A program made the translations under genes and the position numbers. This document shows positions 1-21,804 of a stretch of 30,380 nucleotides of DNA, in pieces. How positions within the stretch are numbered: the stretch's first letter is position 1; every line of letters starts with the position of its first letter. This stretch comes from a virus: positions 1 through 30,380 of the IMG/VR virus record IMGVR_UViG_3300013004_005298. The stretch is one strand, 5' to 3'. The notes under the pieces are model-generated. The model saw only the letters and a program-made list of their open reading frames with translations, searched no databases and was not told the origin of the DNA.

Positions 1-16
1 ACCTGACCCCCTGATT

Positions 17-121
17 TCATCCAGCGGGGATTAGATCCGGGCCGTAGTTCCGCCGCTCGCTCATCCCCAGACTGGCCTGAAGATGGGCAACCGCTTCCCG
101 CATCGCGGCAGGCGTCACCAT
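17..121 (-). pseudogene. IS3 transposase OrfB remnant (34 codons)
   Basis: Translation from the ATG ending at 121 gives an N-terminus typical of IS3 OrfB (MVTPAAMREAVAHLQASLG, then MSERR). It then runs into NYGPDLIPAG and a stop at 17-19, right beside the left inverted repeat. The DDE integrase core, normally about 250 residues, is missing. The break after SERR marks an internal deletion joining the start of orfB to the left end of the element. Non-functional as a transposase. Confidence 0.85.
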
Positions 122-381
122 TTTTTTGACAGCAGATCCTTCAATGCCGCGTTGTCCAGCATCGTGTCGGCCAGCAGCCGCTTGAGCTTGGTGTTCTCCT
201 CCTCCAGCGCCCGAAGACGCTTGGCCTCCGACACCTCCAGGCCGCCAAACTTGGCCTTCCAGTTGTAGATCGTCGCCTCCGACACGCCGTGCCGACGGGC
301 CAGCTCGCCCGTCTTTGCGCCAGCCTCGGCCTCCTTCAAAAGCCCGATGATCTGCTCTTCCGTAAACCTCGTTCGCTTCAT
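115..381 (-). CDS. IS3-family transposase OrfA
   Basis: This 88-aa protein begins MKRTRFTEEQIIGLLKEAEAG, the usual opening of OrfA in the IS407-like branch of IS3. A helix-turn-helix follows at about residues 8-50 (LARRHGVSEATIYNWKAKFGG), then a leucine-zipper-like helix at about 55-80 (LRALEEENTKLKRLLADTML). OrfA binds the inverted repeats and, when fused to OrfB by -1 frameshifting, gives the active transposase. The length is normal for the family and the gene looks intact. Because OrfB is almost entirely deleted, the protein could at most bind IS ends or interfere with related elements. Identification is secure from sequence pattern. Confidence 0.93.
   Translation of the reverse strand: MKRTRFTEEQIIGLLKEAEAGAKTGELARRHGVSEATIYNWKAKFGGLEVSEAKRLRALEEENTKLKRLLADTMLDNAALKDLLSKKW
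121..127 (-). other. Programmed -1 frameshift site of the IS (A7)
   Basis: On the minus strand the end of orfA reads TCA AAA AAA TGG TGA. Seven consecutive A residues form an X XXY YYZ slippery heptamer in the orfA frame. A -1 slip places the ribosome on ATG GTG ACG, the orfB frame. This is the classical IS3 mechanism, here a relic because orfB is gone. Confidence 0.75.
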
Positions 382-446
382 CGTCCGTCCTCTCCAAGGG
401 CCGAACTCTAATCCATCGTGGAGGAAAATCAGGGGGTCAGGTCAGC

Positions 447-557
447 CTCAGAAAAGGGTGGGAGGAAACGCTCAAAAAAGCTGGCTACATTCTGAAGGGG
501 CATCGGATGGTTAGGCTAAAAGATGCTGAAACCCGAACCCAACCGAGCAGTCTCTGA
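447..557 (+). pseudogene. Possible C-terminal remnant of a gene cut by the IS
   Basis: Directly outside the right end of the IS, a plus-strand frame reads LRKGWEETLKKAGYILKGH, continues RMVRLKDAETRTQPSSL and stops at 555-557. The composition is protein-like (amphipathic, charged) rather than shadow-like. The frame has no start of its own here and would run into the IS end. It overlaps the 3' end of the convergent minus-strand gene by about 47 bp. I do not recognise the family. It may be the end of a gene interrupted by the insertion, or chance. Confidence 0.25.
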
Positions 558-984
558 TGATGTTTGCGTAACTCAACATGAATTCCTCACGAGTTTCAGG
601 CTTCAGAGCGCCAGTTTCGATAAGATAGTCGTATCCCCCACTTGCATATTGATTAAGAAGCTTAACACCATTGTCCGTTAAGCCAGTCTCGCCGGGCGCA
701 ACAATTCGACTAATAACTTCCCTAACTGCAGATTTTTCTGTCAAATCGATACGAGCTTTTTGTAACTCAGCAATTATAACAAGTCCTATAATAAGATTTT
801 TATAGGGCTTAAAATCGGAAATGAAATAATCCACAACATCCTTGCTCGCTTCCCCCGCAGGTTCGTTTCGCCTCCGTGCCATGAGGCCAACAAGGGCGCA
901 ATAATAGTAAATATCGAATTTTGGCCCCTTATCGACTTTTTTGAACCACTTCTCAGCATCCGAGCGCAAACGAAAGTAGGCCAT
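511..984 (-). CDS. Small protein, last gene of the defence-like operon
   Basis: A 157-aa protein starting MAYFRLRSDAEKWFKKVDKG. An in-frame GTG six bases upstream (to 990) overlaps the ATPase stop as GTGA and could also serve as start. I prefer the ATG at 984 because a GAGG sits about 10 bases before it. The sequence looks mostly helical, with an aromatic-rich segment (FDIYYYCALVGLMARRR, about residues 22-38), a hydrophobic helix (LIIGLVIIAEL) and a C-terminal part around GLTDNGVKLLNQYASGGYDYL. I do not recognise a family. Small partners of DndD-type ATPases, such as DndE, are known, but I see no convincing DndE motif. Its position directly after the ATPase gene suggests a subunit of the same complex. 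It carries no obvious catalytic motif. Confidence 0.8.
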   Translation of the reverse strand: MAYFRLRSDAEKWFKKVDKGPKFDIYYYCALVGLMARRRNEPAGEASKDVVDYFISDFKPYKNLIIGLVIIAELQKARIDLTEKSAVREVISRIVAPGETGLTDNGVKLLNQYASGGYDYLIETGALKPETREEFMLSYANIIRDCSVGFGFQHLLA

Positions 985-986
985 GA

Positions 987-2984
987 TCACTCGCCCTCGT
1001 AGTTGAAGTCGTGGAAATATTTCTGGCCGCTCACCACGACTGAGTTATCAGTTTGCACAACCCCCTCGCCTGGTAGGTTTTTGAGCAGGGCACTTGTCCC
1101 TTCAGTTTTCCGGAAGAGGGTCAGATACTTAATCTGCTTTCCGGCCTCTTCTAAAGCAGTTACAAAACCAGGCCGCTCGGTATCCAAGGTGAAGGCAACG
1201 AATTGAGCGCACAATGAAGGAATAAGCCTACCAATCTTGGCACGAGGCTCAGTGCTAAGCTTACCCGCGGGGCTATCTACAACAAGGGGAAAATCATGGT
1301 TCCCTCGGTTCAGAATGCTCATCAGAAAGACATAGCCTACAGATAGAGTCTGCCCCTCACTCGCACGCTTTTGGTTTGCTAGGGTCAGAGAGCTGTCAAT
1401 GCTCTCAATTTGCAAGACATCATTGACCAGGACATCTTTCAACCGCTGATTACAGACATCTAGCAACTCAGATTTGATGTTCATCTGAGCCTTATCATTC
1501 GCACTTCGGAGAATTTGCTGAAGGAGATTTGTCCGGTCTTTAAGATCGACAGTTTCGGTTATTTCTGAAATCCGTTGCTCGACCTCTTTCAGCTTTCGCG
1601 TGAGAAGTGGTATCGACAAAGATTTTAAAACCTCATTGTCGTCCTTCCTCGAAGACAATCGGTCGTCTTCCGGATCTTTGTCATTGAGTGCAATTAAGCC
1701 GATAAATTCAGATTCGCGTTGCTTGGCATTCGCCAGCTGCTTCTTCCATTCTTCCAGCTTGTCGTCGCCCGCTTTGATTAACTGATTTTCTAGAGAAGCA
1801 ATCTGTTGGCTCGCTTTCTTCAGGCGAATGCGAGACTGCTCCAGATCCTGACTGATACCTTTTTGCGCTTCATAAGGATCAATGTCGCTGCTATTTGAAA
1901 TATAGCGCTCAATGTCAGATTTGATCTCGTTGATAACGCCAATTTGCTTTTCGCCCAAAAATTGCTTCGAGCGGAGACGGATCTGCGCGATGGATTCTTC
2001 ATCCATTTGACGACCGCAAATGCACTCCTTTTCCTGCAAAATTTCCTCAAAAAATTGAGCAGACGTATTTTCAGGGAGCCTAAGTCTATCTAGATTTTCC
2101 TTCAAATAATTGAGGGATTTGCCGACAATCGGATGCAACGCATTGGGATTTCTCAACGCCTGGGCCAGCATTGATGAAAATTTTTCGACATCAGCTTCTG
2201 CTTGCACCTTGTCGTTATACGCTTCCGTATGAAGGTCGCGCGTTGTCGTGTCATCGCTAATCCGGTCGCGAATACGCTGTTCGTTTTTTGCAATATCTGC
2301 CTGAACCGTCTCAAGCTCAGACACAGCCTTAGCTCGGTTCTTTTCTAAAACATCCTTGCGGTTAGAAATGGCCTTTTGAAGATCGGTATACTTCTTTAGC
2401 CCAGATCCAGTTGTGACTGTGGCCGTTTTTGTCTCTCTATCCCAAGCTGCTGCAGCCACCTGCTCGATTTCATCAAGTAGGTACAGCTGACACAGAGCAT
2501 CAATGGCGAACTCAGCTTGCGCCTGTTCTGGATCAAGCAGACCTTTTGCTAATTCACCGTCGAAAATGAAAAGATCCAAGAAGCGTTTATCTAAGAATCT
2601 TCTCACCTCCATGGGAGGGCCCCAATGCATAATCATACCGCCAGTATCTGGCGATGTGGTCCTGTATCTTACACTACCATCGTCATAATCTAGCTCTATT
2701 TCAATGGTTAAGGGGCGCCCATCAATGACCAATTTTGCTGCAAAGACACCAGAGGGACGCGGATCATTGTGCCGTCTAAACTCACGAACTTCATCAGCTG
2801 ACCAGCTCGAAGCACGCCCATGTAGGCATGCCTTCAAGAGCTTAGTGGTAGTCGTTTTCCCGGTACCAGTTGATGCCTGGATCAGGGATATTGGAGAGAC
2901 ACCGCCAGACTGACTACGTAAGTCAATATCAACGTCGGGACAGCGGAGGCCCTCACTCCGCCAGCCTGCAAGCTCAATCTTCAT
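987..2984 (-). CDS. DndD-like SMC/Rad50-type ATPase
   Basis: A 665-aa protein with split ABC-ATPase halves separated by a long coiled coil. Walker A is ASTGTGKTTTT (about residues 37-47). FIFDGELAKGLL (about 139-150) is the FDGE-type motif common in DndD and related RecN/SbcC-like ATPases. Coiled-coil sequence fills roughly 195-505, with a CICG knuckle at 321-324, where Rad50-type hooks often sit. The ABC signature TLSVGY lies at about 546-551 and the Walker B strand PLVVDSPAG at about 566-574, with Ser where many ABC ATPases have the catalytic Glu. DndD takes part in DNA phosphorothioation, but no dndA, dndB or dndC is present, so a sulfur role is not supported. It is likely a DNA-sensing or DNA-remodelling motor. 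It overlaps the 67-aa gene by 11 nt at its start and the last operon gene at its stop. Confidence 0.85.
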   Translation of the reverse strand: MKIELAGWRSEGLRCPDVDIDLRSQSGGVSPISLIQASTGTGKTTTTKLLKACLHGRASSWSADEVREFRRHNDPRPSGVFAAKLVIDGRPLTIEIELDYDDGSVRYRTTSPDTGGMIMHWGPPMEVRRFLDKRFLDLFIFDGELAKGLLDPEQAQAEFAIDALCQLYLLDEIEQVAAAAWDRETKTATVTTGSGLKKYTDLQKAISNRKDVLEKNRAKAVSELETVQADIAKNEQRIRDRISDDTTTRDLHTEAYNDKVQAEADVEKFSSMLAQALRNPNALHPIVGKSLNYLKENLDRLRLPENTSAQFFEEILQEKECICGRQMDEESIAQIRLRSKQFLGEKQIGVINEIKSDIERYISNSSDIDPYEAQKGISQDLEQSRIRLKKASQQIASLENQLIKAGDDKLEEWKKQLANAKQRESEFIGLIALNDKDPEDDRLSSRKDDNEVLKSLSIPLLTRKLKEVEQRISEITETVDLKDRTNLLQQILRSANDKAQMNIKSELLDVCNQRLKDVLVNDVLQIESIDSSLTLANQKRASEGQTLSVGYVFLMSILNRGNHDFPLVVDSPAGKLSTEPRAKIGRLIPSLCAQFVAFTLDTERPGFVTALEEAGKQIKYLTLFRKTEGTSALLKNLPGEGVVQTDNSVVVSGQKYFHDFNYEGE

Positions 2985-3177
2985 TTGATCGCCCCTTTAC
3001 GATGAGCGTGCTCAAAACCAGCCTCAAGGATTGCTCATTATCATCGACGGTCAATTCGCCGCCGCTTAGCTCTGTTAGCCAGCCAATGAGACGTCTAGCT
3101 GTTGCATCTGGCTGACCAGCCTCCTTTACAGCCTCGAATACCGCCGCTTCAAGCGCTGGGTCAATTTGGGCGCTCAC
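2974..3177 (-). CDS. 67-aa operon protein of unknown function
   Basis: Begins at a GTG that overlaps the helicase stop (GTGA) and ends 11 nt inside the ATPase gene, so translation is probably coupled at both ends. The protein is short, acidic and apparently all-helical (LEAAVFEAVKEAG, then ARRLIGWLTELSGGEL). It has no cysteine cluster, membrane segment or recognisable enzymatic motif. Its place between helicase and ATPase suggests an adaptor between the two machines. I do not recognise the family. That both overlaps preserve the frame argues that it is a real gene. Confidence 0.75.
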   Translation of the reverse strand: MSAQIDPALEAAVFEAVKEAGQPDATARRLIGWLTELSGGELTVDDNEQSLRLVLSTLIVKGRSNED

Positions 3178-5171
3178 ACTTCATCCCCTCTGCGAATCGT
3201 CGATAAGTTGGTCAACCAGGCGCACCTTTCCTGATCGGCGTCGGGAACACCACCCCCGTCCTTTGTGGGACGTACAAAATCCAGCACTCTTGCGCGCTTC
3301 TCGGGCCGTGATGGATCGAGCCTTAAACACCTTCCTATCCTCTGAATTGTCTCCAGCTTTGCGCTGGCTGACGCAAATAGCACGACATTTTCAAGAGCCT
3401 GAATGTCTATCCCTTGCGAAATCCTGTGACAGGTTACCAGACAGTCGAACTCTCCTCTTGCAAACCGCAAAAGATCAGCCCGGTCGTCATCCGCATAGTA
3501 AGTACGGTATCTATTTGTATATCGGTCAATTATTTCGAGAACCCGCCTCCCATATTCAATCGTTTCGACAAAAATTATGCAGTTCTTTAGAACATCTGGG
3601 TTAGATTGCAGATATTTATGAAATACATCCGGCTTAGCTTCAGCCGTTTTGTAAACCTTAGAATATTCAATCCAAACTTCTTCCTTGGACATCGGATTTC
3701 CGGCATGCTGTCGCGCTGCCTTTTTCCTTTGAACATCCCGCAATCTATCCCGATCATTTTGGGTTAGCTCGTAGCCAAGAGGAATATAGTCAAATTCACA
3801 AAGAACGCCCCGCGAGATAGCGCGCTCAAGTGGAAATTCAAAAATAGTGGGGCCTAGTTCGGACGCGATAAATGCATTTCCGCCATCATCGTACGCCCGC
3901 TCCGGAGTTGCACTCAGTCCTAATTTCCATCCAAACCTAGAGTGTCCTCCCTTCAAAGAATCTACTAGGGCCGGCTGACCAAGGCCGTGCACTTCATCAT
4001 GTATAATAAGCATTCTATCTCGAACGTCTGGCAAAATCTGCTTCAAAGCTTTACCAAGTTGTGTTCTTGAAATTACCAAAACCGAAGGATGGACTGTGCG
4101 AGCATAATCGGCCATTTCATGATGCCGCCCAAAATGCCTATAAATTATCCATTCGCGCCGCGATGAATCTAGAGCCCATTCGCCCAGCTCAATGCTCCAT
4201 TGTTCGAGAAGATCAGTGCCATCTGTTGTGACTATAGCCCGATCAATCTTCCCCGAATTTATAAGATTATCGAGTATCTTAATTGATGTCCGCGTCTTAC
4301 CGGTCCCAGTCGCCATTTCCAGAATGCCAGCCCGCTGCTTAAGGAATGCATCCACGGCCTCCTCTTGGTGCCTCCATCGCGGGTCGGTTACGACAGCCTC
4401 CCGAACTACTGGTTCTTGCATTTCTGGCCTCACAGACGGCGCGCGTGCGCGGAGTTTTTTTAGGACGATATCTGATGGCGCGAGGACATTTAGTCCTTGA
4501 GCCTTGTTGCCCCAGGCTTCATCAAACTGAGCTGCTTTGTCGTCAACGCGCCCCGCATCACCGGGCACCCAATCGCGATATACATCTATAGTTTCATAGT
4601 TTTGTGCATGCCCCCGGTATGTCTCATTGGCTGAACCAATAAATGCGACACGCTCGCCGGAGGGGAAATCGAAAACACCATACTTTGCATGAAATAGATC
4701 AGCGCCTTGCACATGGGATGGAAAAGCAAATTTAATCTCCAGCCTTTCATTTGCCAGTAACCAAGCAAATATCTCAGCACGGACTTTCAAGTCAGACGTA
4801 TTTTCGGCATATTGTGAAATCTTATCTAAAATATTGTCGCATATTTGTTGACGGTATTCTTGCCTATTTTCCTGCCCACCCAACTCTTGGAGGGTTTTTA
4901 CATCTGAAACCGACAGCTCAGGCGAAGCAATTAACTGAATTTTTAATCCATCATCCGCCACCAAATGTGGCAAAGCACTAACCCAAGTTACAAGAGCGGA
5001 GCTGGAAAAATATCCAGCCGCTCTCCTATAACGAACCGCCTCCTTCAGGCAGGGCGCAAAAAACTCTACGCCGAGAGTGCTGGAACCTGAGCGATAGTGG
5101 CCAAGCAATTCTAAAATCCGCTGGCTTAATTGGGTTTGTGTGGCAGGCGATGACATGCTGGGACCGCTCAC
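3174..5171 (-). CDS. PLD-nuclease / superfamily 2 helicase fusion
   Basis: A 665-aa protein. The N-terminal part (about residues 30-220) is a phospholipase-D-like domain: the HxK core is in LFHAKYGVF (H161, K163) and the Asn-containing strand is FIGSANET (about 178-184). One HKD-type half usually acts as a dimer. The C-terminal part is a DEAD/DEAH-family motor: WRHQEEAV (about 266-273), Walker A MATGTGKT (286-293), DEVH box (392-395), SATP (420-423), SQGIDI (about 585-590) and QRIGRCLR (610-617). Related fusions occur as the restriction component in dnd-associated and other defence loci. The start is GTG at 5171; an ATG five codons in is an alternative. It lies 7 nt after the upstream gene and overlaps the next by 4. 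The likely role is tracking along and cutting foreign nucleic acid. Confidence 0.88.
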   Translation of the reverse strand: MSGPSMSSPATQTQLSQRILELLGHYRSGSSTLGVEFFAPCLKEAVRYRRAAGYFSSSALVTWVSALPHLVADDGLKIQLIASPELSVSDVKTLQELGGQENRQEYRQQICDNILDKISQYAENTSDLKVRAEIFAWLLANERLEIKFAFPSHVQGADLFHAKYGVFDFPSGERVAFIGSANETYRGHAQNYETIDVYRDWVPGDAGRVDDKAAQFDEAWGNKAQGLNVLAPSDIVLKKLRARAPSVRPEMQEPVVREAVVTDPRWRHQEEAVDAFLKQRAGILEMATGTGKTRTSIKILDNLINSGKIDRAIVTTDGTDLLEQWSIELGEWALDSSRREWIIYRHFGRHHEMADYARTVHPSVLVISRTQLGKALKQILPDVRDRMLIIHDEVHGLGQPALVDSLKGGHSRFGWKLGLSATPERAYDDGGNAFIASELGPTIFEFPLERAISRGVLCEFDYIPLGYELTQNDRDRLRDVQRKKAARQHAGNPMSKEEVWIEYSKVYKTAEAKPDVFHKYLQSNPDVLKNCIIFVETIEYGRRVLEIIDRYTNRYRTYYADDDRADLLRFARGEFDCLVTCHRISQGIDIQALENVVLFASASAKLETIQRIGRCLRLDPSRPEKRARVLDFVRPTKDGGGVPDADQERCAWLTNLSTIRRGDEV

Positions 5172-5178
5172 TTCCTGT

Positions 5179-8100
5179 TCATGGATCTAAGTGGTCTGAC
5201 GTGGCAAGATCGTCCATAATTTGATCCAGCATCTTTGCTTCGGTCAGCTGTCGAAACTCGAGAAGCAATTTGTCCAAATCGCTTAGATCTTCCTCGATGC
5301 TCAAAGCAGGATTAACCACTTCAGCCCCGTCAATCATCGACAACAGCAGGCGTTCATTCATCCAGCCGCCCATCGTTGCCCCACGCTCTCGCGCCTCCTG
5401 CATCAGTTGACGGCCCAAGGGGCTTTGCCAATTCAATTCCCCAAAATTGTGCAGTTCATCCTCAAGCTGGCTGACAATTTCGTTCAGGCGTGGCCCACGC
5501 ATTTGCAGCATCTGCCAATTGCTCGACGGATCAAATTGCAGTGCGCCAAGGGCGTTCATCATCGCAACCATCCCAGCCGAAATGTGGGCATCGGCTGTTC
5601 TGTTGAGTATGCGGTTCCCAACGATCCAATTAAATTTTCCAAAGGCTTTCGCCTCGAGACAGGCCGCAAGGAGACGACACATGTCAGGCAGTGCATAGCC
5701 CACCTCAGAGCGTGGCTCGAAATGCAGATGGAACTTACCGCCACGAACATCGATGATCTGTCTCCACTCAGCTTTTTCCTGATCGTGGACAGGCCATTCC
5801 TCAACTGAGGCGACTGTGAGAAGAGATTCGAACAACGCCGAATGAGCATGCCTTTTTGCCCATCTGCAGAGGGCATATTCTGCAGCTGGCGTCCAAAGCC
5901 TGAATGCACCCCACGGCTCTCCCGCTCGCCGGCCCAGCGCAAAAAGTCGTCCCTGCTCCTCATTAAGAAGATATGTTGGGGGCCTAAGCAATAGCTCGTC
6001 CTCACCGGGCATCGCCTGATGAAGGCCGTATACGCCCGGCAAGGCTCTTACAAAGACCTCGCGGTGCATCAGCATGGTTGGTCCAACGCTGGCGATCGAG
6101 CGATCTGATGGCAGTGTTTTTTGCGCCTCAGTGACAATATCCGTAAATTTCATCGGCCCTGTGCGCTCGAGGATCCCCTTGAGGAAGCCTGCCATGGTGA
6201 AGGTATCCTCCCCATCATCCCCTTCGAACGAAGACAGAGGTGCAAACTCAAACTCACTTGCGCCGCCCGAATTTTCCTTTGCGCCGAGACCAAACCACTC
6301 TGCATCATCCCCTTCCAGAAAAAGGTGAGGGTACCGAGACATAATCGCTGAAATATATCTAATTGAAATGGAGGGGCTGTTCACCTTTGCAGACAACCTC
6401 TGGACCAATTCAGCCACATCTATGGGGCGCGCATCTGATCCAAACATATTATGAAGTTCGACAACACGCCTCACGAGACGCGTTCCCCGGTCAGCCTCCA
6501 AGATGTACCCGCCGTAAAGCCGCTTACCAAGCTTCAACTCAACGACAACAGCCGTCAAATCGGCCTCAGAAAATAAACCTAGACGGGGGCAGGGCCTTGG
6601 CAGTGGCTTGCCCTTCAACTCATCCTCAATCGACGACGCAATGGCATCCAGCTCGGCAATGTCGGTCGCTTTGCTGCACCAGCCGCCTCCCCAGCGCCTT
6701 CCATAGTTGTCAAGCCACCCATCGAGGGTCACGCCTGCCACATCCGACAGAAAAATGAACTCTGCTGGCAGCCCCCTGACATTCTTAACATCATTTTGGC
6801 TGAGGTACCCCTTATCGCCACCTAGGCTGATCCAAGCCTTGTCGCCGAAGGCAAAAAGGCACTCCGCTATCGGCAGAAGTTTCGCGGTTACGGATAAAGC
6901 TCCGAGTGCCTTCTTCTCAATCTGGCGGATCCGCTCTCGGGTGACATTATGGTCCGCACTGATCTGCTCTAGAGTTTCAGCCTGCTGGCGACCGATCCCA
7001 TACCGTCTCTCGATCACCTCTCGAGAACGCGCTTTGAGCCCGGAAAGTAGCCGTTCTGCCATTTCATCGGGTGGAACAACTTCAGAGACAGCGAGATCTG
7101 AAATTTTGAAATTAGCAATGCCCTGCAGAGTGCCGATCAAATCCGCTGACAGCTCATCTGAAATGGGTGTCCGGATCAGAAGGAAATCTGCCGCTGCCTT
7201 GGATGCATCCTCTGCGACATATGCCGTTTGAAGGAACCTCACGATAAGATCTGAGCAGATCTTGGTGAGTTTCTCGAGGCTGGTACGACCAAGGTTTTTT
7301 TGCCGGGTCATTTCCCTGCGAATTTGAGGCCAGTCCAGGAACAGTTCACCGAGCGGGCGCCCCCCAAACTCTGATGCCTGAATTCCATTTGCCACTCGAG
7401 CGGGAGTACCGACAAACCCGCAAATTTGCTCAAGAGTGATGTCACTGAAAAGTTTGGCTAGGGCCTTCAAGAGAAGACCGCTCAGGCTGGCTGGATAAGG
7501 CTCTGAACTCTCGCCTGCCTTCACCTTCAGCGATTGCGCCGGGAACACTCGGGCCAAAATATCTTGAAGCTCGTGGATCGAAGTTCGGCCCATCCCCGAT
7601 ATTTTGCGACATTCAAGTTCTAGTTTGGCAAGATCGGATATTGCAGCGGCTACGGTCATCCCGGCAAGGTGGGAGCGTGAAATGCAATTCGTCAGCCGCA
7701 CGGAGGCGTCGGAGGACATGACGAACTCACTAAGCGTCGTAGTCTCCGGCGGGGTCAGCGGAAGCTCTCCGGAGACGAAACGCGTCTCTATACCACCTGA
7801 AAAATCAGCCCCTTCATTCGCCCCTTTTTCAGCAAATGCGTCAACGAGCCTAAGGAGCTCAGCGAGGGTTGTTCGTCCGAAATTGGGAACCTTGATGCAC
7901 GCATTCTCAAACTCGAGCCGGTTTTCAAGCGCCCACCGCAGGGTTGTAGAACGAAAATATTTATCGTCAGAGCAGTTGCTTAAGCGAGTACCCACAGTGC
8001 TCGCCTTGATCAACATTTCAATGGATTGATCATAAATCCCGATCGCCAACTCACCTTCACCGAGCTCTTCTAAAGGAGCAAGGTCCGACGCCGTCAAACT

Positions 8101-8580
8101 GGGCGCACTAGATGCACTGCCTTCAGCTACGTCCACAGGATATGAAATAGGTTCGATTTCAGCGCCAAAGACCGTATCTACAAAATGAATCGATTGAGTA
8201 GGCTCAAGCTCTTGTTTTGGGATCCCAAGGATTTCAGTTGAATCCAGAGTTGCCGCCAGCTCCGGCTCGTCAACTAATGGGCTTCCCTCCGTCTCCATCT
8301 CACCAAAGGCACTGGAGGAACTGGGAGCGAGGGTATTGACGCTATCAACTTGTTGATTGCGGAAGGCTCCCACCGCTCTTTTCACAAAATCCAGGAGTGT
8401 TCTTGACCTCATTGTTTTCCTTCGACCCAACTCTCTGATTACTTCTTGAACAAACTGCGGATTTTTATCGCTCTTGTGAAAAGCATCCTCTATTTCGTCA
8501 GCCTTCATACTGAATAGCGTTCTAAGTTCTTTGTCTGAAGGCATAAATTCCGCCAATCCCGTTATGGAAGAGCCGGCCAT
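5179..8580 (-). CDS. Large alpha-CTD-like / sigma-70 region 4 / winged-helix mosaic protein
   Basis: A 1133-aa protein built from transcription-type DNA-binding modules. Three helix-hairpin-helix repeats resembling the RNA polymerase alpha C-terminal domain end at NFGRTTLAELLRL (about 233-245), GMGRTSIHELQDIL (329-342) and NLGRTSLEKLTKI (429-441). A sigma-70 region 4 follows at about 505-562, with the almost canonical helix-turn-helix TLEQISADHNVTRERIRQIE. Two later segments, about 715-765 and 793-855, look like HARE-HTH/RNAP-delta winged helices. The C-terminal 270 residues are unassigned. I see no nuclease or ATPase motif. It starts 19 nt inside the WYL gene and ends 7 nt before the helicase gene. 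It may target the system to DNA, promoters or RNA polymerase; this is inference. Domain calls are firm for region 4 and good for the alpha-CTD-like repeats; the winged helices are tentative. Confidence 0.88.
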   Translation of the reverse strand: MAGSSITGLAEFMPSDKELRTLFSMKADEIEDAFHKSDKNPQFVQEVIRELGRRKTMRSRTLLDFVKRAVGAFRNQQVDSVNTLAPSSSSAFGEMETEGSPLVDEPELAATLDSTEILGIPKQELEPTQSIHFVDTVFGAEIEPISYPVDVAEGSASSAPSLTASDLAPLEELGEGELAIGIYDQSIEMLIKASTVGTRLSNCSDDKYFRSTTLRWALENRLEFENACIKVPNFGRTTLAELLRLVDAFAEKGANEGADFSGGIETRFVSGELPLTPPETTTLSEFVMSSDASVRLTNCISRSHLAGMTVAAAISDLAKLELECRKISGMGRTSIHELQDILARVFPAQSLKVKAGESSEPYPASLSGLLLKALAKLFSDITLEQICGFVGTPARVANGIQASEFGGRPLGELFLDWPQIRREMTRQKNLGRTSLEKLTKICSDLIVRFLQTAYVAEDASKAAADFLLIRTPISDELSADLIGTLQGIANFKISDLAVSEVVPPDEMAERLLSGLKARSREVIERRYGIGRQQAETLEQISADHNVTRERIRQIEKKALGALSVTAKLLPIAECLFAFGDKAWISLGGDKGYLSQNDVKNVRGLPAEFIFLSDVAGVTLDGWLDNYGRRWGGGWCSKATDIAELDAIASSIEDELKGKPLPRPCPRLGLFSEADLTAVVVELKLGKRLYGGYILEADRGTRLVRRVVELHNMFGSDARPIDVAELVQRLSAKVNSPSISIRYISAIMSRYPHLFLEGDDAEWFGLGAKENSGGASEFEFAPLSSFEGDDGEDTFTMAGFLKGILERTGPMKFTDIVTEAQKTLPSDRSIASVGPTMLMHREVFVRALPGVYGLHQAMPGEDELLLRPPTYLLNEEQGRLFALGRRAGEPWGAFRLWTPAAEYALCRWAKRHAHSALFESLLTVASVEEWPVHDQEKAEWRQIIDVRGGKFHLHFEPRSEVGYALPDMCRLLAACLEAKAFGKFNWIVGNRILNRTADAHISAGMVAMMNALGALQFDPSSNWQMLQMRGPRLNEIVSQLEDELHNFGELNWQSPLGRQLMQEARERGATMGGWMNERLLLSMIDGAEVVNPALSIEEDLSDLDKLLLEFRQLTEAKMLDQIMDDLATSDHLDP

Positions 8581-9542
8581 GAGAATGGAACTGTAGGCAT
8601 CATTTCCTGCAATTTTTGTGGTGATAAAACCTCAACTTCATCTCCCCATTTGACCAGATGCCAAGCCATTTCCAAAAGCCCCCCCGCCTTGAAATGCACA
8701 ATCAGCCTTCCTGCTTCATCTTCTTCAGCATCTTGACTCGGATGAAACACGAATTGCTTGGCCATTGGTGCGGCCACTTTAGAGAATCTCCAAACAACAT
8801 CGTATGGTTCTTCCTCAAAGATGCCGAATGAATTGGAAATAAATTCCCTTAAGGTGAAATTCTTATCCCGCTCAAAACTTTCGTCCTCCAGCTTCAAATT
8901 CGCTATGGCGGGGAGACTGTAAAAACGAACATCACTGCCCCCATTTGCGACACCAACGAGGTAGTGGCGATGCCCGTAGAGGAACCCGAGGGGCGATACA
9001 GTGCGTTCAAGAGCCTTGCCTCCCGCCCTTGAAGCATACCGAAACGTCACCTTCCTACATGACTTGATGGCAGTGCGCAGTGTCTCAATTGTTTGCGGAG
9101 AAATGAATGGCTTCGGCCCAGGCCGCAATGCGATCCCTTCAGCTTCGGTCAACGCCTCGAGATCCGGTTCGATGTGGGGCAAACTTCCTGTGGAGAGGGA
9201 ATTACGAATTTTGGCACCAAGCATGCGCAGGCCTTCGGCATGCGTTTGAAGGTTCGCTTTTCGCATCGCCTCCGCCGCCACCTCGAGATTGGCCAAATCA
9301 TCCGAGGTCACATCGACGAAAGTCTGGGCCGCGGTCCTGGGCAAAGCCCAACGCTTCGCTCGCTCACCCGTTTCAATTTTGCTGCCTTGGGGGAAGGCCC
9401 TCAAGACCGCGTCACGCATTCGGATGGCCGTTCGCCGGCTAACCTCGAACTTCTCCTCGATTTCAGCGATAGAAACACCGCCCTTCGCGGCTTGCATCTC
9501 AAGTGCAAGCTGTATCAGTCGTTCTGCCCTCCCGTAACGCAT
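8562..9542 (-). CDS. WYL-domain transcriptional regulator
   Basis: A 326-aa protein of standard length for the family. An N-terminal helix-turn-helix (SIAEIEEKFEVSRRTAIRMR, about residues 24-43) is followed by a WYL ligand-sensing domain (about 150-225), whose core reads RTVSPLGFLYGHRHYLVGV, with His in place of the family Trp. The C-terminal WCX extension (about 245-320) contains FVFHPSQ and WGDEVEVLSP. WYL regulators commonly head and repress defence operons and are thought to respond to nucleic-acid or nucleotide ligands. It is the first gene, and its stop lies inside the start of the next gene. The ATG at 9542 is the natural start, but its ribosome site is weak (GGGCGGGG). Autoregulation through the inverted repeat upstream is likely but unproven. 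Confidence 0.92.
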   Translation of the reverse strand: MRYGRAERLIQLALEMQAAKGGVSIAEIEEKFEVSRRTAIRMRDAVLRAFPQGSKIETGERAKRWALPRTAAQTFVDVTSDDLANLEVAAEAMRKANLQTHAEGLRMLGAKIRNSLSTGSLPHIEPDLEALTEAEGIALRPGPKPFISPQTIETLRTAIKSCRKVTFRYASRAGGKALERTVSPLGFLYGHRHYLVGVANGGSDVRFYSLPAIANLKLEDESFERDKNFTLREFISNSFGIFEEEPYDVVWRFSKVAAPMAKQFVFHPSQDAEEDEAGRLIVHFKAGGLLEMAWHLVKWGDEVEVLSPQKLQEMMPTVPFSWPALP

Positions 9543-9894
9543 AGGCCCCGCCCTTCTCGATCACCCTTATATCAGGCAATCGAAATTGGACGACTGATAA
9601 ATCCATGCACAAATGTCCTCATTTGGCATAGATAAGGTGGACTGAACCTCTTCATATGCGGCGCAGGCCTAGCGAACCGATCGACCCACAATCTATGCCA
9701 TTTGAGGACACTCATACCTCTGGCAGCCGTTACGGCTAGAGCAATTCCTCTCCATCCCAAGCCCACCATTTCTGGAGGAAAGATTGATCAATGCCGAATG
9801 CGTCAACCGATTCTCGATTTAAACTCTTGTTGTTACAGCGAGATTAATCTTCGTGACCACCAGTGAAGCCCTGTTTCCCCAACTATTCGCTTGA
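9543..9894. other. Intergenic region between defence-like operon and phage tail genes
   Basis: About 350 bases with no convincing gene; the short minus-strand frame at 9572-9769 has no protein-like character. It contains the inverted repeat at 9614-9710, a possible -10 (TATAAG on the minus strand near 9568) before the WYL gene without a clear -35, and a weak 5-bp hairpin AGCCG/CGGCT at 9725-9737. No strong terminator for the phage operon and no tRNA-like attachment site are seen. Confidence 0.6.
9614..9710. promoter_or_regulatory. Imperfect inverted repeat, candidate WYL operator
   Basis: Arm 1 at 9614-9633 reads TGTCCTCATTTGGCATAGAT. Arm 2 at 9691-9710 reads ATCTATGCCATTTGAGGACA, the reverse complement with 2 mismatches in 20. 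The arms are separated by 57 bases, and their centres are about 77 bp apart. Arm 1 ends about 72 bp upstream of the WYL start codon. The spacing is too long for a terminator, but it suits paired operator sites bound by a multimeric regulator with looping, or a recombination site. Binding by the WYL protein is inference. Confidence 0.55.
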
Positions 9895-13690: not shown

Positions 13691-14227
13691 TCAGGCTTCG
13701 TTGACTGAGAGTGCGCCGGTGGCGGCAAGCTGCATGGGTTTCGAGGTCACAGGCAGCTTGCGATAGGCCGGCCGCCGCACGGCAATGCAGCGATCCTTGG
13801 CAATCCGGGTGATGGTCACGCCGTCGGACTGGTTACCGCCGAGTACATGGTAGGCGCCGTAATCCTCGCCAACATAAAGCCCAACATGGCCCGAGGCCTG
13901 CCCGCGGCGGAACACGACCACGTCGCCGAGCTGCGCCTTATCGGCAGCCTTGCCGAACTTGGCCCAGTTGCGCGCCCAGAGCGGGTCTTCGACGACTGGC
14001 TTGCCGCCGCGCTTGGCGACCACTGCTATGAATAGGCCGCACCAGGGAATGCCATCCTCGAGATAGGTGCGCGCCATGCCGACCTCCTTGGCCCAGTCGA
14101 TGATCAGCGGATTACTGGCAGGGCCTGGACCCTCGAAGGTGCCGTAGAGCTTACGGGCTTCTGCCAGCATGCGGGGCAATGGGGACAGGTCATCGAGCCA
14201 GCAATAGGCCGGCGGCAAAGGGTTCAT
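13691..14227 (-). CDS. Endolysin, TIGR02594/CHAP-like cysteine peptidase family
   Basis: A 178-aa peptidoglycan hydrolase. The catalytic cysteine is in IPWCGLFIAVV (Cys63) and the catalytic histidine in ASGHVGLYVGED (His114), about 50 residues later, as in NlpC/P60/CHAP-type amidases or endopeptidases. ARNWAKFGKAA and GDVVVF between them are typical of the TIGR02594 family. There is no signal peptide, so release depends on a holin. GAAGGAG is not present, but a strong GAAGGAG-like site, GAAGGAGATACCCC, precedes the ATG. It lies between two holin-like genes. Confidence 0.85.
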   Translation of the reverse strand: MNPLPPAYCWLDDLSPLPRMLAEARKLYGTFEGPGPASNPLIIDWAKEVGMARTYLEDGIPWCGLFIAVVAKRGGKPVVEDPLWARNWAKFGKAADKAQLGDVVVFRRGQASGHVGLYVGEDYGAYHVLGGNQSDGVTITRIAKDRCIAVRRPAYRKLPVTSKPMQLAATGALSVNEA

Positions 14228-14247
14228 GGGGTATCTCCTTCAGGAGG

Positions 14248-14463
14248 TTAGCGGCCAGAAAAGCCCTTGAACGCAGCCGTGATCACCGCGATCGCGGCAA
14301 CAAGGGTCGAGAGCCATTTGACGAAGCGCACGACGCCAGTGGCCGTGTTCCAGGCCTCGAGCAGGTCCTTCAGTTCCTTGCGCACCGCCTTGAGCTCAGC
14401 TTGGACCGCTTCAAGGTCAGCGCGGATCAGCGCCATTTCCACAGCGGGGTCCTTGTTGGACAT
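14248..14463 (-). CDS. Holin-like protein with coiled coil and single TM helix
   Basis: A 71-aa protein. Residues about 10-40 form a charged amphipathic coiled coil (LEAVQAELKAVRKELKDLLE). A single hydrophobic helix follows (about 47-66, VKWLSTLVAAIAVITAAFKG), then a short basic end. GGAG lies about 9 bases upstream of the ATG, inside the end of the S74 fibre gene. This resembles small holin or hemolysin-XhlA-type lysis proteins, and the endolysin follows about 20 nt downstream. Which of the two holin-like genes triggers lysis, and whether one acts as antiholin, cannot be told from sequence. Confidence 0.65.
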   Translation of the reverse strand: MSNKDPAVEMALIRADLEAVQAELKAVRKELKDLLEAWNTATGVVRFVKWLSTLVAAIAVITAAFKGFSGR

Positions 14464-14465
14464 GC

Positions 14466-15602
14466 TCAGTCTCCGGGCGGGATTGGAGCGCCTCGCTGCG
14501 CTCGCAAGGCATCAAGTTCAGCCTTGAGGTCGGCTATGGCTTGAAACGCGACTGCGGTCAGTTTGGCGTAGTCAACGGCCATCTGGCCGTTTGGGCGAGT
14601 ACGAACTGCCAAAGGGAACACCCGCTCGACATCCTGGGCGATGACACCGAAGTCGGCCTTGCGCACAAACAGCCCGTCTTCGCCGCCGCGCGCCGCAATA
14701 TGATCATCGCGCCAGTCAAACAGCTTTCCTCCGATGCTACCCACAATATCAAGCGCACCAGCGATCGGCCGGACATGCTCTTTGAGCCGCGCATCGGAGG
14801 CAAAATAGGCTGTGATGTCACCGGTCGCACGGATCTCGCCGGCAATGCCCGGGGCAGTTATCCCGATGCCCAGCGAACCCACCTGATAATGGCCGGCGGT
14901 GTTGAGCGCATTGGCGGTACCTGCAACGGTCGCCGTGGTTGCGGCACTGGCACTTGCCGCACTCCCACTGATCGAGATGCCCCATGTGCCAGAAGCACCC
15001 ACACCGCTCCTCGATGGCACATCGAGATTGGCGCGCGCTTCGACCCCTGTTGTCCCGCCCGTGCCGCCGCCAGCAACAAGCACCGTGCCGGCGAGCTTGG
15101 AGGCGGCAAGCGACGTCAGCCAGGCAGGATCGGCATAACTGGCTGTGGAGAGCAGCGCGGCGCTGGATTGCGCGGGCGCACTGAGCCCAATCGTCCAGGC
15201 AGCGTACGTGCCGCTGCCACCAACTGCAGACACGTTGACGACAAGCGCGCCGGTGACGCTGGTGTAGGCGGTAATCTGACCGTGCATCCAGTTTGCGGGT
15301 GAGGCCGTGCTTGTAACCGTCACCCATTGCCCCACCACAAAGGCCTTGGCCGTCTGGACGGTGAGCGATTTGGATCCGGTGCCTGTGGCAAGCGAAGTGG
15401 TGCTGGTCGCGCTGGTGCCTGGCGCATTGGTGGCGGTCGCAGCACTTGCCGCGGCATTGCTGGCATAGCCGTTCACTTCGCTGGCGAGCGCATTAGCCTG
15501 AGTGGCAAAGTTCGGCAGCGCGAAAAGGAAGGCGTCAGCGCGCGCGTTGAAATTCGTCGCGTCCGCCCGGGTGGGCGGCGTCGGCAAAGCAGTTATCGGC
15601 AT
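14466..15602 (-). CDS. Tail fibre/spike protein with S74 chaperone domain
   Basis: A 378-aa protein. The N-terminus (LPTPPTRADATNFNARADAF, then NALASEVNGYA) is common in tail proteins of alphaproteobacterial prophages. An Ala/Ser/Thr-rich stalk follows (about 45-80), then a beta-rich segment with WMHGQITAYTSVTGALVVNV (about 105-124). The C-terminal S74 chaperone starts at SDARLK (Ser269, Lys274) and continues to DFGVIAQDVERVFPLAV, ending in a helical tail. The S74 part is expected to assist trimerisation and be released by self-cleavage. It follows the 297-aa tail protein by 19 nt and precedes the lysis genes. Confidence 0.85.
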   Translation of the reverse strand: MPITALPTPPTRADATNFNARADAFLFALPNFATQANALASEVNGYASNAAASAATATNAPGTSATSTTSLATGTGSKSLTVQTAKAFVVGQWVTVTSTASPANWMHGQITAYTSVTGALVVNVSAVGGSGTYAAWTIGLSAPAQSSAALLSTASYADPAWLTSLAASKLAGTVLVAGGGTGGTTGVEARANLDVPSRSGVGASGTWGISISGSAASASAATTATVAGTANALNTAGHYQVGSLGIGITAPGIAGEIRATGDITAYFASDARLKEHVRPIAGALDIVGSIGGKLFDWRDDHIAARGGEDGLFVRKADFGVIAQDVERVFPLAVRTRPNGQMAVDYAKLTAVAFQAIADLKAELDALRAQRGAPIPPGD

Positions 15603-21618: not shown

Positions 21619-21703
21619 GCGGGCGTGGCGGAATTGGTAGACGCACCAGATTTAGGTTCTGGCGCCGAACAGCGTGGGGGTTCGAGTCCCTTCGCCCGCA
21701 CCA
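21619..21703 (+). tRNA. tRNA-Leu (anticodon UAG)
   Basis: Acceptor stem GCGGGCG pairs with CGCCCGC (21693-21699), and CCA is encoded at 21701-21703. The D-arm is GCGGAATTGGTAGACGC, the anticodon stem CCAGA/TCTGG with loop TTTAGGT (anticodon TAG), the variable arm is long as expected for leucine, and the T-loop is TTCGAGT. It lies on the plus strand, antisense to the surrounding tail operon, and should read CTA and other CTN codons. Confidence 0.93.
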
Positions 21704-21718
21704 TGCCGATGTCGCGGC

Positions 21719-21804
21719 GCGGATGTGGCGGAATGGTAGACGCCCGAGACTTAAAATCTTGTGAGGGTATCCTCGTGCGGGTTCGAGTCCCGCCATCCGC
21801 ACCA
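21719..21804 (+). tRNA. tRNA-Leu (anticodon UAA)
   Basis: Acceptor GCGGATG pairs with CATCCGC (21794-21800), and CCA is encoded at 21802-21804. The D-arm is GCGGAATGGTAGACGC, the anticodon stem CGAGA/TCTTG (one G-T pair) with loop CTTAAAA (anticodon TAA), the variable arm is long, and the T-arm is GCGGG/CCCGC with loop TTCGAGT. It starts 15 bases after the first tRNA and presumably shares its transcript. It should read TTA and TTG codons. Confidence 0.93.

What the first reader, a model, noticed from the sequence alone, without database searches (positions are those of the whole stretch)
511..9542. Unrecognised six-gene defence-like operon: WYL, sigma/alpha mosaic, PLD-helicase, 67-aa, DndD-like ATPase, 157-aa
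All six genes are on one strand with overlaps or gaps of at most 7 nt, so they look like one functional unit. A WYL regulator, a PLD-helicase fusion and an SMC-type ATPase are each recurrent parts of anti-phage systems, but I know no named system with the large transcription-factor-like protein as central subunit. The operon is visibly more AT-rich than the phage next to it, which fits horizontal transfer. Function in defence is inference.
Basis: partly seen in the sequence, partly recalled or inferred. Interest (0 to 1): 0.88.

Follow-up and report, generated by a model that had tools for sequence, protein, structure and literature searches.

The report
Phosphorothioation-linked Pbe defence operon, extended
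The six-gene operon is a known kind of bacterial anti-virus system (PbeABCD) carrying two extra upstream genes, one of which, a large DNA-reading protein built from RNA-polymerase-like parts, turns out to be a recurring and little-noticed fifth partner of such systems.

Summary
In detail: six tightly packed minus-strand genes (511-9542), 50% GC beside a 62-63% GC phage. The claim "unrecognised system" is mostly wrong. The last four genes are a complete PbeABCD (CxC ABC-ATPase/DndE) module: PbeA (HKD nuclease-SF2 helicase; PADLOC PbeA E=1e-259), PbeB (Pfam Sp-CxC), PbeC (CxC zinc-hook ABC ATPase) and PbeD (predicted DndE-like fold). The module was described in 2019 and reannotated in 2024. The new part lies upstream. 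The 1133-aa protein (three alpha-CTD-like repeats plus sigma region 4, no sigma-2) is a recurrent Pbe partner. Relatives sit directly beside Pbe modules in dnd-linked (Rhizobium, Rhodobacterales plasmids) and methyltransferase-linked (Aurantiacibacter and three genomes) systems, but are absent from about two thirds of the Pbe loci examined. It is the fastest-evolving gene of the locus in two independent pairs, yet under purifying selection. The WYL gene was found only here. The operon lies beyond the last tail gene; none of about 40 close phage relatives carries it, so phage cargo is not shown. The contig ends in an IS3 element, so a dnd or methyltransferase partner cannot be excluded. Best reading: a Pbe restriction operon with a variable DNA-reader subunit, WYL-regulated. 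New variant of a known kind.

The parts
8562..9542 (-). WYL-WCX transcriptional regulator with N-terminal HTH; first gene of the operon, probable autoregulator
   Evidence: Pfam WYL 1.1e-11, WCX 1.7e-11, HTH_11 8e-4; no relative found at the other Pbe loci
5179..8580 (-). 1133-aa alpha-CTD/sigma-4 protein (called SIG here): three alpha-CTD-like repeats (about aa 196-245, 291-345, 393-450), sigma region 4 (511-562), C-terminal half of unknown fold
   Evidence: Pfam sigma70_r4 1.1e-11, RNA_pol_A_CTD 2.4e-5; repeats R1/R2 and R2/R3 align with 0 of 500 shuffles as good; PDB sequence match is to sigma 3.2/4 only
3174..5171 (-). PbeA: HKD (PLD) nuclease fused to SF2 helicase; HxK and GSxN motifs, Walker A, DEVH, SAT and QRxGR all present
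   Evidence: PADLOC PbeA 1.2e-259; 58% identical to Rhizobium PbeA
2974..3177 (-). PbeB: small CxC-system protein, 67 aa
   Evidence: Pfam PF20304 Sp-CxC, E 1.7e-8, above gathering cut-off
987..2984 (-). PbeC: CxC-clade ABC ATPase; Walker A GTGKTT, zinc-hook CICG, D-loop region VVDSPAG
   Evidence: PADLOC PbeC 3e-21 against DndD 7e-13; alignment with nine PbeC proteins
511..990 (-). PbeD: DndE-like partner of PbeC
   Evidence: Position and size; 46-48% identical to Rhizobium PbeD; AF2 model (pLDDT 75) whose best solved match is DndE 5wtu (Z 4.6), then TraY in the F relaxosome (Z 3.7)
9614..9710 (.). 20-bp inverted repeat (18/20, arms 9614-9633 and 9691-9710) upstream of the WYL gene; candidate regulator operator
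   Evidence: (0 of 300 shuffles as good)
115..381 (-). IS3-family OrfA at the contig end; not part of the system but bounds what can be seen
   Evidence: Pfam HTH_Tnp_1 6e-25

Best explanation
The operon is a PbeABCD (CxC ABC-ATPase/DndE) restriction module extended by a large DNA-reading accessory subunit (SIG) and placed under a WYL regulator. Inferred working: WYL holds the promoter in check by binding upstream, perhaps at the inverted repeat, and releases it on infection. PbeC (zinc-hook ABC ATPase) and PbeD (DndE-like ribbon-helix-helix DNA binder) load on and scan DNA. SIG, with its alpha-CTD repeats and sigma-4 domain but no sigma-2, cannot act as a sigma factor by itself and serves as a DNA-reader that helps pick or verify the target (promoter-like sequence or modification state). 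PbeA, a helicase with an HKD nuclease domain, then attacks or blocks replication of DNA judged foreign, with PbeB as small partner. Self DNA would be marked by a phosphorothioation or methylation module that in this contig is either beyond the IS3 end or missing. Shown: gene identities, motifs, recurrence of SIG with Pbe, its faster evolution. Inferred: defence activity here, the SIG role, WYL control, the self mark.
For: Four consecutive genes match PbeA, Sp-CxC (PbeB) and PbeC, with PbeD by position, size and predicted fold. Gene order A-B-C-D and protein sizes match the archaeal system (PbeB 66 aa, PbeD 152 aa; PMC6459918). The closest relatives, two Rhizobium plasmids, carry SIG-PbeA-B-C-D facing dndCDEA. 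SIG relatives also precede PbeABCD beside dndBCDEA in two Rhodobacterales plasmids and follow PbeD in four methyltransferase-linked Pbe loci. SIG is under purifying selection (dN/dS 0.21 and 0.18) but evolves about 2-11 times faster than the Pbe and Dnd genes of the same locus in two independent pairs, while its sigma-4 stays 94% identical; this fits a specificity subunit. Sequence matches to RNA polymerase sigma factors cover regions 3.2-4 only.
Against: No experiment. About two thirds of Pbe loci examined have no SIG, so it is not required in general. SIG could equally be a transcription regulator. Faster evolution can also mean weaker constraint. No modification gene is visible in the window. 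The C-terminal half of SIG gave no usable model (pLDDT 33), so a catalytic role is not excluded. In the tested archaeal system viral DNA was not visibly cleaved (PMC6459918).
Confidence: 0.55

Rival explanations
1. SIG is a transcription factor, not a subunit of the effector: it binds promoter elements (alpha-CTD on AT-rich DNA, sigma-4 on -35-like DNA) and tunes expression of the pbe and neighbouring modification genes, with WYL as a second regulator.
For: Both recognised domain types are promoter-contacting parts of RNA polymerase. SIG lies upstream of PbeA in the dnd-linked loci, a usual place for a regulator.
Against: In four methyltransferase-linked loci SIG is the last gene, after PbeD. 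It is 437-1133 aa with several DNA-binding units, large for a local regulator. A WYL regulator is already present here. It is the fastest-evolving gene of the locus, which fits recognition of foreign targets better than regulation of its own promoter.
Confidence: 0.3
2. The operon is a solitary Pbe remnant without a modification partner: it sits at a prophage edge next to an IS element and may be inactive or act by a modification-independent route.
For: No dnd, ssp or methyltransferase gene recognised around the operon in the window. In the 2019 survey 320 of 553 pbeAC pairs lacked dndCD nearby (PMC6459918). IS3 OrfA lies next to PbeD.
Against: All six frames are intact with conserved catalytic motifs. 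The contig simply ends in the IS, and in the nearest relatives the dnd genes start about 63 nt after PbeD, exactly the side that is cut off.
Confidence: 0.25
3. The six genes are a phage-carried (moron) defence module of this prophage that protects the lysogen against other phages.
For: It directly follows the last tail gene in the same orientation, a common place for lysogenic conversion genes; the record is classed as viral.
Against: About 40 close relatives of this phage lose similarity at or before window 9890 and none has any part of the operon; what follows the tail genes differs between relatives and often looks bacterial. Composition and codon use differ from the phage. No SIG relative in viral contigs or phage records.
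Confidence: 0.2

Closest known systems
PbeABCD / CxC ABC-ATPase-DndE system (Haloterrigena jeotgali A29 DndCDEA-PbeABCD, Xiong 2019 PMC6459918; reannotated by Rakesh 2024 PMC10853773)
   Same: Same four genes in the same order with the same sizes: HKD-SF2 helicase, small Sp-CxC protein, CxC zinc-hook ABC ATPase, DndE-like protein
   Different: Two extra upstream genes (WYL, SIG) that the tested archaeal system is not described as having; no modification genes visible in the window
Rhizobium leguminosarum WSM1689 and Rhizobium sp. NXC14 plasmid loci (SIG-PbeABCD facing dndCDEA)
   Same: SIG then PbeA-B-C-D in the same order; PbeA 58%, PbeC 45%, PbeD 46-48%, SIG 33% identical
   Different: SIG is shorter (764 aa, one alpha-CTD-like repeat by eye); the gene upstream is a RelA/SpoT-domain protein, not WYL; dndCDEA is adjacent
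Methyltransferase-linked Pbe loci (Aurantiacibacter atlanticus plasmid; loci L196, L198, L203)
   Same: PbeA-B-C-D plus an alpha-CTD/sigma-4 protein in one operon
   Different: A DNA methyltransferase is the first gene and SIG is last, after PbeD; Pbe proteins are distant (PbeA about 28% identical)
MzaA of the MZA system (PADLOC, NCBIfam NF041931)
   Same: Large protein sharing the sigma region-4 block
   Different: The match covers only about 60-90 residues, far below the NCBIfam cut-off (57 against 800 bits); the partner genes of MZA are absent
BREX with the WYL regulator BrxR
   Same: WYL regulator heading a multi-gene defence operon (general knowledge)
   Different: No PglZ, BrxC or methyltransferase; only the regulator type is shared

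Membership tests
PbeABCD (CxC ABC-ATPase/DndE) system | PbeA: HKD endonuclease domain fused to SF2 helicase | tested here: met
   PADLOC PbeA 1.2e-259; HxK, GSxN, Walker A, DEVH and QRxGR conserved in the alignment
PbeABCD (CxC ABC-ATPase/DndE) system | PbeB: small Sp-CxC protein between PbeA and PbeC | tested here: met
   PF20304 1.7e-8, above the gathering score
PbeABCD (CxC ABC-ATPase/DndE) system | PbeC: ABC ATPase with CxC zinc hook | tested here: met
   CICG at the hook position, Walker A and D-loop region aligned with nine PbeC proteins; PADLOC PbeC ranks above DndD
PbeABCD (CxC ABC-ATPase/DndE) system | PbeD: DndE-like double RHH protein | tested here: inconclusive
   Orthologous to PbeD of annotated loci; the model's best solved match is DndE at Z 4.6, then TraY, but a profile comparison with canonical DndE gives no similarity and Foldseek alone gave no significant hit
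PbeABCD (CxC ABC-ATPase/DndE) system | Antiviral activity dependent on a DNA modification (phosphorothioation in the tested system) | not testable with these tools
   No modification genes recognised in the window; the contig ends in an IS3 element
Functional sigma-70 family sigma factor (for the 1133-aa protein) | Sigma region 2 for core RNA polymerase and -10 binding | tested here: not met
   Pfam finds only region 4; PDB sequence matches cover sigma 3.2-4 only
MZA system | Full-length MzaA and the other MZA genes | tested here: not met
   NF041931 57 bits against cut-off 800; none of the other genes matched MZA components in PADLOC
Canonical Dnd modification (DndABCDE) or DndFGH | DndC sulfurtransferase / DndF-G-H proteins | tested here: not met
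   No such match among the six proteins; genes beyond the contig end not testable

The most novel reading that the evidence does not exclude
The alpha-CTD/sigma-4 protein is a fifth Pbe subunit that decides what is attacked: it borrows the DNA-reading parts of RNA polymerase so that the nuclease recognises promoter-like or actively transcribed foreign DNA (or its modification state), and the same add-on was joined independently to phosphorothioation-linked and methylation-linked Pbe systems.
Probability: 0.25. Interest if true: 0.72.

Novelty: new variant of a known kind. Interest (0 to 1): 0.42.

Why it matters
PbeABCD blocks virus replication, but how it finds its target is unknown. A recurrent, fast-evolving DNA-binding partner gives a concrete candidate for target choice, testable by a single deletion in Rhizobium or Rhodobacterales loci. 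If confirmed, it would add promoter-type DNA reading to the ways bacteria tell foreign DNA from their own, and it would correct annotation that calls these proteins sigma factors. The finding also shows that the window operon should be labelled Pbe rather than unknown.

Tried and rejected
Wholly new system: rejected, because four of six genes are PbeABCD. SIG as a true sigma factor: rejected, no region 2. SIG as MzaA: rejected, the match is limited to sigma-4. Genome-wide scan with the SIG alignment was swamped by RpoD-type sigma factors through the sigma-4 motif and gave no clear relative; with the C-terminal half only, 385 class-mates of G003 gave none, so I switched to PbeA as anchor. Viral contigs: no SIG relative; only one true divergent Pbe module, L093. 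HARE-HTH winged helix in the SIG C-terminus: only sub-threshold Pfam hits in 3 of 9 relatives, none in the window protein; left open. PbeD against canonical DndE by profile: no similarity; Foldseek alone: none. Literature: the 2012 HARE-HTH paper and the 2020 ABC-ATPase classification are not held.

Full report
WHAT IS THERE. The six ORFs are present exactly as reported on the minus strand, with junctions of -19, +7, -4, -11 and -4 nt. The operon is 50.0% GC against 60-65% for the phage, and codon use differs (TTA and CTA make up 18% of leucine codons in the operon, 4% in the phage genes). The phage part is an HK97-type siphophage late region: large terminase, portal, protease, major head protein, connector, tape measure and tail-fibre genes.

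IDENTITY OF GENES 3-6. PADLOC calls the 665-aa helicase PbeA with E=1.2e-259 and the ATPase PbeC with E=3e-21, ahead of DndD at 7e-13. The 67-aa protein is Pfam PF20304 'small protein from certain CxC ATPase-based DNA modification systems'. The ATPase has Walker A GTGKTT, the CICG zinc hook and the VVDSPAG motif aligned with nine other PbeC proteins. The 159-aa protein has no family hit but is 46-48% identical to the gene in the same place in Rhizobium plasmids. Its AF2 model (pLDDT 75, pTM 0.75) has, among 777 compared chains, DndE (5wtu, Z 4.6, rmsd 3.8, 90 residues) as best match and a chain of the F-plasmid relaxosome that I take to be TraY (Z 3.7) second, with only three rows above Z 2. 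These Z values are low in themselves, but the two top rows are precisely the two ribbon-helix-helix proteins that Rakesh et al. 2024 compare (PMC10853773). Foldseek alone and a profile comparison with canonical DndE gave nothing, so the DndE-like fold is supported, not proven. Together this is the PbeABCD module of Xiong et al. 2019 (PMC6459918), which Rakesh et al. reinterpret as the CxC ABC-ATPase/DndE system: PbeA the HKD nuclease-helicase, PbeB the small protein, PbeC the CxC ATPase, PbeD the DndE cognate.

THE 1133-AA PROTEIN. It has sigma region 4 at 511-562 and an alpha-CTD match at 282-343. Three alpha-CTD-like repeats align with each other: R1/R2 and R2/R3 beat all 500 shuffles; R1/R3 is weaker (6 of 500). 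PDB matches extend only over sigma 3.2-4, so sigma-2 is missing and it cannot be an ordinary sigma factor. The C-terminal half has no Pfam match; weak HARE-HTH-like hits appear in 3 of 9 relatives. AF2 with the three rows allowed gave pLDDT 33 and says nothing.

RECURRENCE. Searching plasmids with SIG, without reference to Pbe, and leaving out true sigma factors, gave Rhizobium WSM1689 and NXC14, Pontibrevibacter, Ruegeria, Aurantiacibacter and three Acidiphilium plasmids. All but the Acidiphilium group (one inspected) have SIG directly beside PbeABCD: upstream of PbeA with dndCDEA or dndBCDEA adjacent, or downstream of PbeD with a methyltransferase upstream of PbeA. In genome samples PbeA was found in 3 of 385, 8 of 397 and 4 of 369 genomes. 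Reading 13 of these neighbourhoods gave SIG in three more methyltransferase-linked loci (L196, L198 and the degraded L203) and none in the dnd- or ssp-linked ones. Over all Pbe loci examined, SIG is beside 9 of about 25. These are counts of a small sample, and some members are close relatives (L002/L003; L005/L006). The WYL gene was found only in the window. Some other Pbe loci carry a GmrSD-type gene instead (L192, L193, L200), so accessories vary.

EVOLUTION OF SIG. In two independent pairs of loci SIG is the least conserved gene: 84% against 93-97% (dN/dS 0.21 against 0.04-0.08) in Rhizobium, and 73% against 86-97% (0.18 against 0.02-0.09 for the Pbe and Dnd genes) in Rhodobacterales. It is thus kept by selection but diverges quickly, while its sigma-4 part stays 94% identical. 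This is what a specificity subunit would show; relaxed constraint is an alternative. In the Rhodobacterales pair the unrelated 299-aa gene upstream has a similar ratio (0.17).

PHAGE CONTEXT. About 40 viral contigs closely related to this phage (roughly 72-87% nucleotide identity) match up to window 9890 at most and none beyond. What follows in them is different each time and often bacterial-looking by my reading of the translations. The operon is therefore at or just past the end of the prophage, and that it is phage cargo is not shown. The record ends next to an IS3-family OrfA at 115-381, so whether a dnd or methyltransferase module follows, as it does about 63 nt after PbeD in Rhizobium, cannot be known from this window.

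HOW IT MOST LIKELY WORKS. Shown: gene identities, intact motifs, recurrent SIG-Pbe linkage, SIG divergence. From the literature: PbeABCD with DndCDEA lowers virus plating about 10^4-fold, all four pbe genes contribute, replication of the virus is stopped, and cleavage was not seen (PMC6459918); Rakesh et al. argue that cleavage by the HKD domain is likely (PMC10853773). Inferred: PbeC-PbeD scans DNA, SIG adds a DNA-reading step, PbeA executes, WYL regulates through the region carrying a 20-bp inverted repeat at 9614-9633/9691-9710.

NOVELTY. Core system: known. SIG as a recurrent partner: in the 2019 paper the word sigma does not occur, and in the 2024 paper it occurs once, for a DndH variant. 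From memory, Aravind and Iyer 2012 described bacterial proteins combining alpha and sigma features with HARE-HTH, so the domain architecture itself is probably known; that paper and the 2020 ABC-ATPase paper were not available here, so prior mention of the linkage cannot be excluded. Hence 'new variant of a known kind', with moderate interest.

Noticed in passing
window 21619-21804: Two tRNA-Leu genes (anticodons TAG and TAA) on the plus strand, inside the minus-strand phage structural genes. They read CUA and UUA, codons scarce in the phage genes (3.5% and 0.4% of Leu) but common in the operon (9.1% and 8.8%). Many phage relatives lose similarity at about 21568, just before them.
   Followed up: partly
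window 9614-9710: Near-perfect 20-bp inverted repeat with 57 nt between the arms, between the last tail gene and the WYL gene; folds into a very stable hairpin (-51 kcal/mol as RNA). Candidate WYL operator, or terminator.
   Followed up: partly
window 1-510: Contig ends at an IS3-family element directly next to PbeD; the Aurantiacibacter plasmid locus L177 also has an IS3 transposase directly after its Pbe-SIG operon (14012-15183).
   Followed up: no
L192 4547-6361, L193 4797-6770, L200 6644-8584: GmrSD-type restriction genes next to dnd-linked PbeABCD modules, suggesting interchangeable accessories.
   Followed up: no
L004 8575-11199: Acidiphilium plasmid copy of the sigma-4 protein without Pbe, next to a RES/Xre toxin-antitoxin pair; possible solo or different role.
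   Followed up: no
L203 8100-15130: A methyltransferase-PbeABCD-SIG locus broken into many frames, apparently decaying as a whole.
   Followed up: no
L093 4711-11343: A divergent PbeA/PbeC module on a viral contig, preceded by a 639-aa ORF with no Pfam or PADLOC match.
   Followed up: partly
L002 7548-8633 and L003 7683-8768: A RelA/SpoT-domain gene sits directly upstream of SIG in both Rhizobium loci, where the window has WYL.
   Followed up: no
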